Part shown: one piece after another, positions 36,772 to 43,200 of the stretch | Layout of the letters: each line of letters starts with the position of its first letter | How positions within the stretch are numbered: position 1 is the stretch's first letter | Assembly: GCA_918797485.1 (NCBI GenBank) | Contig: CAKKNE010000005.1 | Coordinates: 3,286,001-3,350,000, forward strand | Direction: 5' to 3' | Origin: Pelagomonas calceolata | Taxonomy: Eukaryota; Sar; Pelagophyceae; Pelagomonadales; Pelagomonadaceae | Length of the DNA: 64,000 bases | Translations under genes and position numbers: made by a program | The notes under the pieces: generated by a model | Database searches by the model: none | Seen by the model: the letters and a program-made list of their open reading frames with translations, nothing else | What the model was told of the DNA's origin: nothing

Positions 36772-37785
36772 CTACTTCTTTTGTGGCGGAGGACACCAGA
36801 GGCTCAGCGCGATGCCGCCGCCGAGCGTCGCGACGATGACCCCTAAACTCCACGACGTCGGTACGTGGATATGATAGTACTCCGCGAGCATTTTGAGGCC
36901 GACGAAGCCCAAGATCAACGCCACGGCCGGTCTCAAGTAAGGTAAGCCCGCGATAGCCGCTGATAAAACCTGGTACAAGGACCGTAGCGCCGCAATGGCG
37001 AAGATGTTTGAGCTATAAACGATGAAGGGGTCCTTCGTGATCGCGAGTACTGCTGGGATGGAGTCGACCGCAAACACAAAGTCGGATAGCTCGATGCACA
37101 CTACACACAGCAACAAGGGTGTAGCTGCACGACTACCATCCCTTAACTTCGTGAAGAACTTGTCCCCATCATAATACTCTACGGACTTCGTCACCGCTTT
37201 CGATAACCTTACGAGGGAGTTGTTGCCCATTTCCTCGTCGTCGTGATCGCCCTCTGTTAGTAATTTCGCGGCCGAGGCGAGCAACACCCCCGCAAACAAC
37301 AAAGTCACGACTCGGAACCGTTGCACTAACTCGACACCCACGAGAATCATGACGCCTCGCATCAACAGGGCACCGATGATGCCCCACCTTAGTGCTTTCT
37401 CCTGCATGGATGCCGGGACCCGAAAGTACTCAAACAGCAAAATGAACACGAACAAGTTGTCCACGCTCAGCGATTGTTCGACTAGGTACCCCGCGAAGAA
37501 CTCCATCGCGACCTCCTTGCCTCTGGTAACTGCGACGCCGACGCCAAACGCGCAGGCGCTTAATATAACACCGATGGTCGTGATCACGGCCTGGCGCATC
37601 TCGGCGTCGCTTGCCTTGGCGATGGTGCCGCCGCTGACACATAGTGCTGTGTTGTCTATTGGTTTTGCGGCGGCGCGGCCGGTGACCGGCTTTAACGCGA
37701 GCGGCTTGGCGCGCTGTTGCGGGCGGGCCGCGACGTGCGCCAGGAGCAGCGCGCAGGCGAGGCGCATCGTCCTGTGCCTGGGCAT
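36772..37785 (-). CDS. TerC-family integral membrane protein, probably plastid
   Basis: The protein has 337 residues; a second Met at residue 7 (MRLACALLLAHVAA) may be the real start of the signal. After a basic transit-like stretch there are about eight membrane helices. TerC signatures are clear: FFAGYLVEQSLSVDNLFVFI, and CIELSDFVFAVDSIPAVLAI, the paired acidic motifs (SVDN and DSIPA) in the membrane. In plants the TerC homologue is needed for thylakoid membrane assembly; bacterial members handle metal ions such as manganese. The targeting peptide supports a plastid role here. Confidence 0.9.
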   Translation of the reverse strand: MPRHRTMRLACALLLAHVAARPQQRAKPLALKPVTGRAAAKPIDNTALCVSGGTIAKASDAEMRQAVITTIGVILSACAFGVGVAVTRGKEVAMEFFAGYLVEQSLSVDNLFVFILLFEYFRVPASMQEKALRWGIIGALLMRGVMILVGVELVQRFRVVTLLFAGVLLASAAKLLTEGDHDDEEMGNNSLVRLSKAVTKSVEYYDGDKFFTKLRDGSRAATPLLLCVVCIELSDFVFAVDSIPAVLAITKDPFIVYSSNIFAIAALRSLYQVLSAAIAGLPYLRPAVALILGFVGLKMLAEYYHIHVPTSWSLGVIVATLGGGIALSLWCPPPQKK

Positions 37786-37971
37786 CTTGCTAGTTTGCTG
37801 CTATCTTGCTGTTGAGTGCAATGCTGCTATGTTCAAATTTGCTGGCAGCGCAGTTCTATGAGCTGTGGCGTCTCCGAGTCGACGAGAGCACGACAGCGTC
37901 AAGATATGGGCAGGGTGGCAGGTTAAGCGCTATAACTCCTCACCACTCGTCACTTTTTCATCAAAATATTC

Positions 37972-38070: not shown

Positions 38071-40020
38071 ATGCGGCGGCGAGCACTGATGCTGCTCTTT
38101 GCGAGCAGCGCCAGGGCGCTGCTGCGCGCCGGCGCACCGGTAGGACGGCTGGCGCGCCGCGCTGCGAGCACCGCCGACGAGCAACTCGTAGCTGTCAAGG
38201 TCACCATCGACCAGAGGTTGAGAGACGCCCTGCGCCTGCCCGGCAAGCAGCGCCGACCGCGCTGTTTTGTCAGAGACAAAGACGAAGCGACGCTAAGAGA
38301 CGCTATTGAACAGAAGGTTCCTTCATTAAAACTGCAGGACTACGCCATCCGACACGAGGATGATACTGTGGTCGTCGAGCCAAGAGGCCCACTCCTCACA
38401 ACTACAGACAAAGAGCCGGAGGTGGTCACTTCCGATAAATACGCCATGGTGTCGTGGTACCACTTCTTCACCGGTAAACACGACGCAGAAGCATTAGTCA
38501 GGACGCTCCAGGCGACCTGGTCCCAAATGGGCGTCCTCGGCCGGGCTTATGTGGCAAATGAAGGCGTCAACGCGCAGCTCTGCGTGCCCGATACCCACGT
38601 GGACACGTACAAGGAGCACCACGCCCGGCTCTTCGACAAACTTGAAGAAGAAGCGCCTTCATTAAACTTCGACGGCACGGTAGAAAAGGAAGAAACGATG
38701 CCGTTCCGCGCGCTGAAGGTTCGGACCAGGGATTATGTGGTCGCGGACGACGGCGTCGGCGCCGATTTAGATTTGCAGGATCCCGGTGTTGATCTGGAGC
38801 CGTCGACGTGGCACGAACAGTTAGGAGGCGACTTCGGCGACAATAATACGTCTACAAACACCATCTTAGATGTGCGCAACCACTACGAGAGCGCCGTGGG
38901 TTCCTTCGCCGGCGCGACGCCGCTAAATACGGAGACCTTCAAGGACACCTACCAAGCGCTCGACGCGGCCCTGGCCGCGAAGCCGAAAAGCGAGCCCGTC
39001 TACATGTTCTGCACGGGCGGCATCCGGTGTGTGAAGGCCGGCGCCTACGTCAAACAAAAGCTCGGGTTTAGCGATGTCCGGCGACTGAAAGGGGGCGTCG
39101 TCAACTACACTCAACAACTCTCCGAGACGAACCTCGAGGAGACGTCGCGGTTCCGGGGCGTCAATTACGTGTTTAATGATCGCGTGGGAGAAAGGGTGAC
39201 GGCGCCTCCAGTACCAGATGGCGAGGTCCTCGATTCAAGAGCCGCGGAAGCGTTGGTGGCCGTGCATGATTCAACAGATGAGGATGCACAGATCGTGCAC
39301 CCCGCGGACGCGTACGCCGTCTCGTTATCCGGCCCGGAGCACCCTCTCATCGAGAGATGTAGGTTGGATGCTTCCGCAAGGTACCCGGCGGCGGCCCACA
39401 TGTGCTCGGGGCCGACGCAGGGCAAATTGCTCGCGACGCTCTGTAAACTAAGGGGCGCGGCCCGCGTTCTGGAGCTCGGCACGTTCTGCGGCTACGGGAC
39501 GCTCTGGCTCAGCAGCGCGTCGAAGGAAGTCATTACGGTGGACCGGGACGAGCGCGCCGCGAACGTTGCAAAGGAGCATTTTCGAGATGTACCTGCGGAC
39601 TGGGGTGCCGTGCGGCAGGTCGTCGCCGATCGCGGCCAGTACCTTGAGAACTGCAAAGACGGCCCCTTCGATTTGGTGTACGTCGACTGCGACAAGAAGG
39701 GCTACGCCGCGGTCTTCGACGCCTTGCTGGATACGCCGGGCCTCTTGTCCTCAAATGCGTGCCTCGTCTTTGACAACACGCTCTGGAAGGGCCGCGTGGC
39801 CGAGGGCACGACTGGTATGAGTCCAAGCGAAGAGGAGGCCATCCTTGCCGAAGCGGAGTTGAATGGAGACGACCCGAAGCGGGCGCTCAAGGCCGCGCGG
39901 CGCGACCGGGCCGTGGCGCAGGCGCTCCACGAGTTCAACGTCAAGCTCCGGAAGGATACGCGCGTGGACCCGCTCGTGCTGCCGCTGCGGGACGGGCTGA
40001 CCGTCGCGACCCTTACGTAA
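38071..40020 (+). CDS. Fusion of a TrhO-type tRNA uridine hydroxylase (rhodanese) and a TrmR-like O-methyltransferase
   Basis: The protein has 649 residues. The N-terminus (MRRRALMLLFASSARALLRA) looks like an organelle presequence. Residues 125-370 match TrhO: GRAYVANEGVNAQLCVP, MPFRALKVRTRDYVVAD, ILDVRNHYESAVGSFAGATP and the catalytic rhodanese loop C314-TGGIRC. From about 430 a CCoAOMT-type methyltransferase follows, with ARVLELGTFCGYGTLWL (SAM motif), DLVYVDCDKKGYAAVFDALL and LVFDNTLWKGRV. In bacteria TrhO converts wobble U34 of tRNA to 5-hydroxyuridine, and TrmR, a methyltransferase of this same class, turns it into 5-methoxyuridine. I infer one bifunctional enzyme doing both steps, perhaps in mitochondria or plastids. 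No introns are needed. Confidence 0.8.
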   Translation: MRRRALMLLFASSARALLRAGAPVGRLARRAASTADEQLVAVKVTIDQRLRDALRLPGKQRRPRCFVRDKDEATLRDAIEQKVPSLKLQDYAIRHEDDTVVVEPRGPLLTTTDKEPEVVTSDKYAMVSWYHFFTGKHDAEALVRTLQATWSQMGVLGRAYVANEGVNAQLCVPDTHVDTYKEHHARLFDKLEEEAPSLNFDGTVEKEETMPFRALKVRTRDYVVADDGVGADLDLQDPGVDLEPSTWHEQLGGDFGDNNTSTNTILDVRNHYESAVGSFAGATPLNTETFKDTYQALDAALAAKPKSEPVYMFCTGGIRCVKAGAYVKQKLGFSDVRRLKGGVVNYTQQLSETNLEETSRFRGVNYVFNDRVGERVTAPPVPDGEVLDSRAAEALVAVHDSTDEDAQIVHPADAYAVSLSGPEHPLIERCRLDASARYPAAAHMCSGPTQGKLLATLCKLRGAARVLELGTFCGYGTLWLSSASKEVITVDRDERAANVAKEHFRDVPADWGAVRQVVADRGQYLENCKDGPFDLVYVDCDKKGYAAVFDALLDTPGLLSSNACLVFDNTLWKGRVAEGTTGMSPSEEEAILAEAELNGDDPKRALKAARRDRAVAQALHEFNVKLRKDTRVDPLVLPLRDGLTVATLT

Positions 40021-40223: not shown

Positions 40224-43200
40224 ATGCGTGAGGTAGACACGAAGGAAGATCGCCATCATCAAGGAATCGGCCCGGGGGCTATCACATTAGCGCAAGAGTG
40301 CGGCAGCATGAAGTTGGGCAGCGTATTGCCGGCGGGAAATGGAGTGTTTGCCTATGATTGCTTCGACTCCACGCGAGCGTGCACCTACGACCAGCTGCGG
40401 ACCCTCCTCAACGACGACCTGGGCGGCGCAGACGCGTCGACGCGGGTGGCGATCGCGATGCGGAACGGCGCCGACCTCGCGCTCGCGCTACTCCGAGTGA
40501 TGCATTGGGCGATCGCGGTGCCGCTCTGCCCGAACAGCTCGCCGGCGGAGCTGCGCGCGGCCATGGAGGGCTGCGCATACTGCATCGTCGACGCAACGGA
40601 CGGTCCCCCCACGGCGGCGGCGGCCGCCGCCGCCGCGGCCGGCGCTTCTGTCGTCGTCGCGGAGCCCAAATCCGGCGAGGCAGGCGCAGTTTTCCAAATC
40701 GCGGCGGAGGCGGTCCGGCGGCCTCCGATGCGGGCCTTCTCGCTCCGGCGCATGTTCTCGTCAAGTCGTATGCTCTCGGCGAAGTCCATGTCGGCGCTGC
40801 CGCCCTGTCTTGTTTTGCGGACGTCGGGCACGACGGGCCAGCCGAAGCTCGTTTATAAAACGCAGCAGCAATTGTCAAGAGGCGGCGCCATCATCGCGAA
40901 AACATTAATGCTGGAACCCTCGGACTGCTGCCTCAACTTCATGCCTTTGCACCACATCGGCGGCATCGTGGCGAACATCTACGCGCCGCTCGCGTCGGGC
41001 TCGGGCGCGGTCTACATCGCCAAGTTTTCGGCGGCGCTGGTCCTGAACCTTGATAACTTGGTACCGAAGGTCACCTGGATCTACTGCGTCCCCAGTCACC
41101 TCCAGGCCATACTGAGTGCGCGGACGCCCGATAGCAAACCCCCGAGTTGCGTCCGCCTCTACCGCAGCGGCGCGGCCGCGCTGCCCGTGGCCGTCGCCGA
41201 GGAGCTCAAGGCCTGGTCCGGGGCGACCGTGCTGCCCACGTATAGCATGTCCGAATGTATGCCAATTGCCTCACCGGACCGCTCGTACGATTTAGGAAGG
41301 CCCTACAGCGTCGGTCCCGCCGTGGGGCCGGACCTCATGATTTCGGAAAAGGGCGAGGTCCTCATCCGCGGGCCGATGGTGTCGACCGACAATCCTGAAG
41401 AGTGGTTCGCGACCGGCGATTTGGGTTCCATCGACGCGGACGGCTGGCTCACGCTCACGGGCCGGTCGAAGGAGATCATCAACCGGGGCGGCGAGGTGGT
41501 AGGTCCCTTAGAAGTCGAGGACGCGTGCCTGCGCCACCCCGCCGTCGCCGAGTGCGTGTGTTTTGCGGTGCCGCACGAAGCACTGGGCGAGGCGCTCGGG
41601 TTGTGCATCGTGCCACACTCCAACATTGTGGCGCCGTCGCTCGACGAGCTCCGCCAGTTCCTGGAGCCCTACCTCACGGCCGCCAAGCGGCCGCAGCACG
41701 TCTGGTACATGACGTCACTAATCAAGGGCCCCACGGGCAAGCCGCTCCGCGTCGGTTTAGCGGATAAGCTGGGCATCGCGAAGCAGGGCGGCGAAACGGG
41801 CGGCGGCATCGCGGCGTCGGCATCGTCAGTAGATGCCGTCATCGAGGCGGTGCGGCGCGTCACGGGCATCAAGGCGACCAGCGGCGCCGCGCGCGTCTCG
41901 GACCTCGGCATGGACTCGCTGAGCTTGATGCGCCTCTCGCACGCCCTGCGCGGGCTCGGCGGGTCGTCGGAGGTGGACAAATTACTATTAGCGGACGCGA
42001 CGATCGACACGCTCGCCCTGGCCGTCGCGCGCCCCGCGGCCGCGGCGGCGGAGAAGACGATCGACCTGGATCCGGTCTTCGGCCTCCGCTCCTTGTTTTG
42101 CCTCTTCGTGGTGCGAGCGCACTTCGCGCGCCACTTCGCGGCGCTCTGCGACACGTGGTGGTTCGACATCCACCACGCCTGGCACACGTCCGTCTTCTTC
42201 ATCATCAGCGGCGCGCAGATGTTCATGACCTACTCCGAGCGGCCGGTGCCGACGAAGACGCTCCTGAAGAACTTTTACGTCGCGACGCTGCCGCTCTACT
42301 ACTTCACGATGGCCGTGGGCGCGGCGGTGTCGTGCCCCCTGGTCGGGCCCGCCTCCTACCTCCTCGCGGCGCCGGTGGCTCTCAGCCCCTGGTGGTCCGG
42401 GAGCGCGCTGGCCCCCGCGTGGTACCACATGTGCCAATTCTGGAACGTCCTCTTCTTCAACCACATAAGGTGGCGTATCCGCTGGGAGCGGTTGTGTGCG
42501 TGCTGCGGCGGGGTGCCTGTCGGCTTCTCCGGCGGGTGGTGTTGCTGTTGTGTGGAACCGGAACCGGGATGCGCCATCGGCTGGTCCAGGCCGATCCCCG
42601 ACGAGCCCGACGTCGCATACCCAAAATGTTGCGCCTGCAAGACGGCCGTCAAGAAGCCCATACCCCCTCCCAAAAGCCTCGGCGAGTTCGGACGGAGGCT
42701 GGTGGCCCCGGGCCTCCTCGCGGCGTTCCTCAACTGGTTCTGGCACCCCATCCCGCCCTTTCGGATGGCGCAGTTCGCGCTCGGTATGGTCATCGGCCAG
42801 GGATGTCTGTCGGTCGAGTTGAACGCGGCCGAGCGCAAAAAGGTGGGCCGGGGCACGGACGCCATCTTTTTCATTTTCATGGTCCCTGAACTGTGTGAAA
42901 ATCAAACAGTGAGTTGGCTGCACGATTCTGCGCGAAGGCGCCATATGAAATTTTGATTTATGCACAGGTCCTGAAGTTCTCGCCCCACGAAATCGTTGCG
43001 TGGGTCCAGTACGGGATCCACTCCGTGCCCGAGGCGCTCCTCGTGTTCGGGCTCTGCCGCGCGCCGTCGGAATCGTGGACGGCGCGGCTGCTGACGCACC
43101 CGCTATTTTTAGGGTTCGTGCCGTACACGTTCGCGGCCTACATCATCCACTTCCCGGTTCTATTGTTCGCGCAGTTCGTGCGGATCGAGGGGATTACCTC

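What the first reader, a model, noticed from the sequence alone, without database searches (positions are those of the whole stretch)
38071..40020. One protein joins tRNA U34 hydroxylase (TrhO) and a TrmR-like methyltransferase
The sequence shows TrhO signatures with the catalytic C314-TGGIRC loop, followed in the same exon by a CCoAOMT-type methyltransferase. Bacterial TrhO makes 5-hydroxyuridine at tRNA position 34, and TrmR, of this same methyltransferase class, methylates it to 5-methoxyuridine. A covalent fusion would make one enzyme for both consecutive steps. The presequence suggests an organelle, where this modification would be unexpected.
Basis: partly seen in the sequence, partly recalled or inferred. 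Interest (0 to 1): 0.85.

Follow-up and report, generated by a model that had tools for sequence, protein, structure and literature searches.

The report
tRNA hydroxylase fused to O-methyltransferase
A marine alga encodes one protein that joins the enzyme that hydroxylates the wobble uridine of tRNA to a methyltransferase of the kind that would methylate that hydroxyl; it is a real and probably two-step enzyme, but the same fusion was already reported in other stramenopiles in 2019.

Summary
Window 38071-40020 (+) is one uninterrupted 649-codon frame. It carries a TrhO half (residues 124-374; NCBIfam TrhO model E 9e-49) and a Methyltransf_3 O-methyltransferase half (420-646; Pfam E 1.5e-25). 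No methionine lies between M312 and M444, so a complete methyltransferase cannot start from its own ATG. The TrhO half falls in the E. coli TrhO clade (100/100) and keeps all four residues shown essential there. The methyltransferase half keeps the metal site, but its tree position is unresolved: grouping with TrmR is neither supported nor rejected (AU p 0.21). A TrmR-like basic patch in the substrate loop and bacterial linkage speak for a tRNA substrate: in 28 of 58 Pelagibacterales genomes a methyltransferase of this family sits directly upstream of trhO. Best reading: a bifunctional U34 to ho5U34 to mo5U34 enzyme with a mitochondrion-like presequence. It is not new in kind: Sakai et al. 2019 (PMC6599085) report the trhO-trmR fusion in two Phytophthora species and Phaeodactylum, stramenopiles like this organism (assembly matches Pelagomonas calceolata). 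New, if shown, would be mo5U in a eukaryote or organelle.

The parts
38071..40020 (+). single-frame gene for the TrhO-methyltransferase fusion, 649 aa
38071..38172 (+). Arg-rich presequence, residues 1-34: 8 Arg, first acidic residue at 36, very amphipathic (hydrophobic moment 0.78); mitochondrion-like
   Evidence: targeting itself is inferred
38173..38439 (+). N-terminal extension, residues 35-123, no family match; low-confidence model
38440..39192 (+). TrhO module, residues 124-374 (UPF0176_N plus rhodanese); lacks the Rhodanese_C tail
38722..38730 (+). R218 and R220, aligned with E. coli TrhO K112 and R114 of the tRNA-binding surface
   Evidence: for the E. coli mutants
39010..39027 (+). 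catalytic loop C314-T-G-G-I-R319, aligned with E. coli C200-R205
39193..39327 (+). linker, residues 375-419, in frame, no methionine
39328..40008 (+). class I O-methyltransferase (PF01596), residues 420-646; model pLDDT 90.9
39685..39696 (+). D539-C-D-K542: first metal ligand and conserved Lys
   Evidence: for Rv0187 D139 and K142
39772..39777 (+). D568-N569: second and third metal ligands
39778..39936 (+). 53-residue substrate (insertion) loop, residues 570-622, ending in the basic stretch DDPKRALKAARRDRAVAQALHEF

Best explanation
This is a bifunctional tRNA wobble-uridine enzyme. The N-terminal TrhO module hydroxylates C5 of U34 with O2, through the CTGGIR loop, giving ho5U34. The C-terminal metal-dependent O-methyltransferase then moves a methyl group from SAM to that hydroxyl, giving mo5U34. 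Its basic substrate loop would hold the anticodon arm. The most likely site is the mitochondrion, on the single U34 tRNAs that must read whole NYN codon boxes (Val, Ala, Pro, Ser-UGA, Leu-UAG). Shown here: one frame, both domains, catalytic and metal residues, TrhO clade. Inferred: the methyltransferase's substrate, the order of steps, the compartment and the decoding role.
For: One frame and no separate start for the methyltransferase. TrhO half in the E. coli TrhO clade at 100/100, with C200, T201, G203 and R205 all kept and K112/R114 as R/R; those residues are essential or nearly so in E. coli. Metal ligands D539, D568, N569 present. The last 22 residues of the substrate loop hold 6 Lys/Arg, as in TrmR (7 in 5zw3, 7 in 8k1f) and against a median of 3 in 110 sequences. 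Pelagibacterales: 28 of 28 genomes with a canonical PF01596 gene have it immediately upstream of trhO on the same strand, behind gatA-gatB in the two loci read in full. The same fusion occurs in Phytophthora and Phaeodactylum and helped Sakai et al. find TrhO. Enzymes of this MTase family known to act on ho5U are TrmR (on tRNA) and Rv0187 (on the free nucleoside). No CmoB above cut-off in this genome, so no competing cmo5U route was seen. Both organelle genomes read NYN boxes with single U34 tRNAs.
Against: The methyltransferase half scores better against BcOMT2 (1.9e-19) and SafC (1.3e-18) than against TrmR 5zw3 (5.1e-9), sits on a long branch and groups with no characterised enzyme. Its predicted fold does not separate TrmR (Z 24.1) from small-molecule enzymes (Z up to 26). 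The basic-patch measure was chosen after seeing the sequences. The TrhO score is 4 bits under the equivalog cut-off, E207 is V, and Rhodanese_C is missing. I found no report of mo5U from a eukaryotic organelle.
Confidence: 0.72

Rival explanations
1. The TrhO half works on tRNA, but the methyltransferase half acts on small catechol-like molecules or another substrate; the fusion reflects shared location or regulation.
For: Best PDB matches are BcOMT2, SafC, SynOMT and PaMTH1, not TrmR; the tree leaves it near bacterial O-methyltransferases of unknown substrate and fungal PaMTH1.
Against: Linkage of this methyltransferase family to trhO in 28 Pelagibacterales genomes; the fusion in oomycetes and a diatom; TrmR-like basic loop. 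Grouping with plant CCoAOMT fares worse in the AU test (p 0.084) than grouping with TrmR (p 0.21).
Confidence: 0.15
2. The enzyme makes mo5U34 but works in the plastid or cytosol, not the mitochondrion.
For: The plastid genome also has single U34 tRNAs for Val, Pro, Thr, Ser-UGA and Leu-UAG; short hydrophobic stretch at residues 7-18.
Against: Strong amphipathic Arg-rich start and no Phe of a typical ochrophyte plastid signal (and own knowledge); oomycetes carry the fusion and have no plastid (own knowledge).
Confidence: 0.3
3. The hydroxylase half makes no ho5U; as a rhodanese-like protein it transfers sulfur or is a remnant.
For: Rhodanese_C absent and E207 changed to V, also in the standalone paralogue.
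Against: All four essential active-site residues and both basic surface positions kept, inside the clade of the proven enzyme.
Confidence: 0.08
4. Two genes run together by assembly or annotation.
For: No RNA-seq was available here.
Against: Single open frame, no composition break, no ATG for a complete second protein; the same fusion in three other genomes.
Confidence: 0.02

Closest known systems
yceA/trhO-trmR fusion of Phytophthora sojae, P. ramorum and Phaeodactylum tricornutum (Sakai et al. 2019, PMC6599085)
   Same: TrhO and an O-methyltransferase called TrmR in one gene, in stramenopiles
   Different: Their sequences are not in the collections searched, so order, linker and orthology could not be compared; no activity of any fusion was found reported
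E. coli TrhO (YceA)
   Same: Same clade at 100/100, 33% identity (94 of 283), all essential residues
   Different: No Rhodanese_C tail here, where an O-methyltransferase follows; presequence and 89-residue N-terminal extension added
B. subtilis TrmR (YrrM, 5zw3/5zw4)
   Same: Same Pfam family and fold, metal site, basic PKR stretch in the substrate loop
   Different: Weak sequence match (5.1e-9); loop 53 against 29 residues; not placed with TrmR by the tree
Pelagibacterales gatA-gatB-MTase-trhO operon
   Same: Same two families encoded side by side in 28 of 58 genomes
   Different: Separate genes in the opposite order; a different TrhO clade
SafC and BcOMT2 type O-methyltransferases
   Same: Best PDB sequence matches of the C-terminal half
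   Different: Act on small molecules; no basic patch in the substrate loop

Membership tests
TrhO (tRNA U34 hydroxylase) | match to the curated TrhO model NF001133 | tested here: inconclusive
   E 9.1e-49 over the whole model, 166.1 bits against a cut-off of 170
TrhO (tRNA U34 hydroxylase) | UPF0176_N plus rhodanese domain | tested here: met
   both over cut-off
TrhO (tRNA U34 hydroxylase) | essential residues C200, T201, G203, R205 | tested here: met
   C314, T315, G317, R319 (essentiality)
TrhO (tRNA U34 hydroxylase) | basic surface K112, R114 | tested here: met
   R218, R220
TrhO (tRNA U34 hydroxylase) | clade of a proven TrhO | tested here: met
   inside the E. coli TrhO and Bacteroidota clade, 100/100
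TrhO (tRNA U34 hydroxylase) | C-terminal Rhodanese_C (present in E. coli TrhO, but not known here to be needed for activity, so an accessory rather than a defining feature) | tested here: not met
   absent in the fusion and in paralogue L002, present in E. coli TrhO and in L003
TrhO (tRNA U34 hydroxylase) | forms ho5U34 | not testable with these tools
   needs biochemistry
TrmR (ho5U34 methyltransferase) | PF01596 fold with Asp-Asp-Asn metal site | tested here: met
   D539, D568, N569
TrmR (ho5U34 methyltransferase) | groups with TrmR in a tree | tested here: inconclusive
   not in the best tree; AU test does not reject it, p 0.213
TrmR (ho5U34 methyltransferase) | basic substrate loop | tested here: met
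   6 Lys/Arg in the last 22 residues, second highest net charge of 110; measure chosen after the fact
TrmR (ho5U34 methyltransferase) | methylates ho5U34 in tRNA | not testable with these tools
   needs biochemistry
stramenopile trhO-trmR fusion of Sakai et al. 2019 | both domains in one gene, in a stramenopile | tested here: met
   assembly matches Pelagomonas calceolata
stramenopile trhO-trmR fusion of Sakai et al. 2019 | orthology with the published fusions | not tested
   no eukaryotic genome collection held

The most novel reading that the evidence does not exclude
A single mitochondrial enzyme carries out both steps of 5-methoxyuridine formation at the wobble position, so that a bacterial-type mo5U34 decoding system works in an organelle of stramenopiles, with the intermediate ho5U34 handed from one active site to the other.
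Probability: 0.45. Interest if true: 0.6.

Novelty: new member of a known kind. Interest (0 to 1): 0.4.

Why it matters
Sakai et al. noted that TrhO homologues in eukaryotes suggest an xo5U-type modification there. A gene with both steps in one polypeptide is a good handle to test this: one knockout and one purified protein would show whether ho5U and mo5U exist in a eukaryote or its organelles, and how such organelles read four-codon boxes with one tRNA each.

Tried and rejected
Placing the methyltransferase by tree: unresolved, long branch. Fold comparison: does not separate TrmR from small-molecule enzymes. Full-length structure with one mixed alignment: abandoned because the TrhO rows were drawn into the methyltransferase half. 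N-terminal half model: pLDDT 61, so the 35-123 extension stays unassigned and no arrangement of the two active sites can be claimed. A bacterial fusion: none seen among the 80 genome loci around related methyltransferases; a 567-residue frame with TrhO in Rhodococcus looks like a long frame in GC-rich DNA overlapping another gene, not a fusion. Viral contigs: nine TrhO loci, no methyltransferase nearby, and no match to the fusion itself. CmoB: only weak matches below cut-off.

Full report
Where it lies. The window is G000:C5:3286001-3350000 of a 32.4 Mb assembly in eight contigs, two of them 90,574 and 39,373 bases. This matches the published Pelagomonas calceolata genome: six nuclear contigs totalling 32.4 Mb, a 90 kb plastid and a 39 kb mitochondrion. 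P. calceolata is a stramenopile. The name is an inference from these numbers.

The observation. Positions 38071-40020 (+) hold one open frame of 649 residues. Residues 124-374 match TrhO: NF001133 E 9.1e-49, with UPF0176_N and Rhodanese in Pfam. Residues 420-646 match Methyltransf_3, E 1.5e-25. The frame has no methionine between 312 and 444, so a complete methyltransferase has no ATG of its own, and no strong splice donor. Composition shows no break at the junction. Two genes run together by mistake is therefore unlikely, though no RNA-seq was available.

The TrhO half. In a tree of 30 sequences it pairs with a standalone paralogue of the same genome (L002, 43% identity) and both lie in the clade of E. 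coli TrhO and Bacteroidota sequences, support 100/100. Sakai et al. found C200, T201, G203 and R205 of E. coli TrhO essential and K112 and R114 needed for activity. The fusion has C314, T315, G317, R319 and Arg at both basic positions. It differs in having Val for E207 and in lacking the Rhodanese_C tail that E. coli TrhO and paralogue L003 have. The genome holds seven TrhO-like genes in all; five of them fall elsewhere in the tree, and the four of those compared by residue have lost one or both basic positions.

The methyltransferase half. The three metal ligands of the family are present (D539, D568, N569; family definition). The predicted structure is confident (pLDDT 90.9) and is the family fold. 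Its subfamily is open. By sequence it matches BcOMT2 and SafC better than TrmR. In trees it sits on a long branch without firm neighbours; holding it with TrmR costs 11.8 log-likelihood units, AU p 0.213; with the Pelagibacterales proteins p 0.203; with plant CCoAOMT p 0.084; with PaMTH1 p 0.458. The B. subtilis TrmR sequence used in the tree is the one printed from PDB 5zw3.

Evidence for a tRNA substrate. First, the substrate loop is 53 residues against a median of 24 and ends in DDPKRALKAARRDRAVAQALHEF. Its last 22 residues hold six Lys/Arg; among 110 sequences the net charge is the second highest, and among the rows printed only the two named TrmR proteins, 8k1f and 5zw3, have more basic residues there. 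This measure was picked after looking. Second, in Pelagibacterales a methyltransferase of this family lies directly upstream of trhO, on the same strand, in 28 of 58 genomes, which are all the genomes with a strong PF01596 match. In the two loci read in full the order is gatA-gatB-methyltransferase-trhO. Their TrhO is of another clade, so the pairing probably arose apart from the fusion. Third, the fusion itself recurs (next paragraph).

What was known. Sakai et al. [quoted passage not shown] They call these bacterial species, but P. sojae and Phaeodactylum are stramenopiles, and P. ramorum belongs to the same genus as P. sojae. The architecture is thus published in the same group. No assay of any such fusion turned up in the papers searched.

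Where it may act. The first 34 residues hold eight Arg and no acid, with hydrophobic moment 0.78, which looks mitochondrial. Oomycetes have no plastid (own knowledge), which also favours the mitochondrion for an ancestral fusion. The mitochondrial genome has single U34 tRNAs for Val, Ala, Pro, Ser-UGA and Leu-UAG, and the plastid for Val, Pro, Thr, Ser-UGA and Leu-UAG; 5,000 bases of the first plastid piece are withheld, so missing plastid tRNAs mean nothing. These are NYN boxes, the ones in which bacteria use xo5U34. No CmoB was found above cut-off.

Verdict. A real fusion, most likely a bifunctional mo5U34 enzyme, with the second activity inferred. It is a new member of a published kind. The open and interesting part is whether mo5U exists in a eukaryote.

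Noticed in passing
L100:2935-4490 and L111:2938-4507; 28 Pelagibacterales genomes: A PF01596 methyltransferase gene lies directly upstream of trhO (behind gatA-gatB where read); a likely unfused bacterial ho5U34 methylation operon outside Bacillota.
   Followed up: yes
G000:C3:3442250, C2:4202640, C1:4529015, C2:1477916, C2:4932689, C5:1257119: Six further TrhO-like genes in this genome; five fall with B. subtilis-type TrhO, and the four of those compared by residue lack one or both basic tRNA-surface positions, so they may have other roles.
   Followed up: partly
L004 (G000:C2:1477916): A TrhO-like module at the C-terminal end of a 512-residue frame with about 200 unassigned residues before it.
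   Followed up: no
window 36772-37791 (-): TerC family membrane protein gene next to the fusion, on the opposite strand (PF03741, E 4e-48).
   Followed up: no
window 40308-42953 (+): Downstream AMP-binding enzyme with a carrier domain (PF00501, PF13193, PF00550), possibly followed by further domains.
   Followed up: no
window 38173-38439 (+): N-terminal extension of the fusion, residues 35-123, without a family match and with a low-confidence model.
   Followed up: partly
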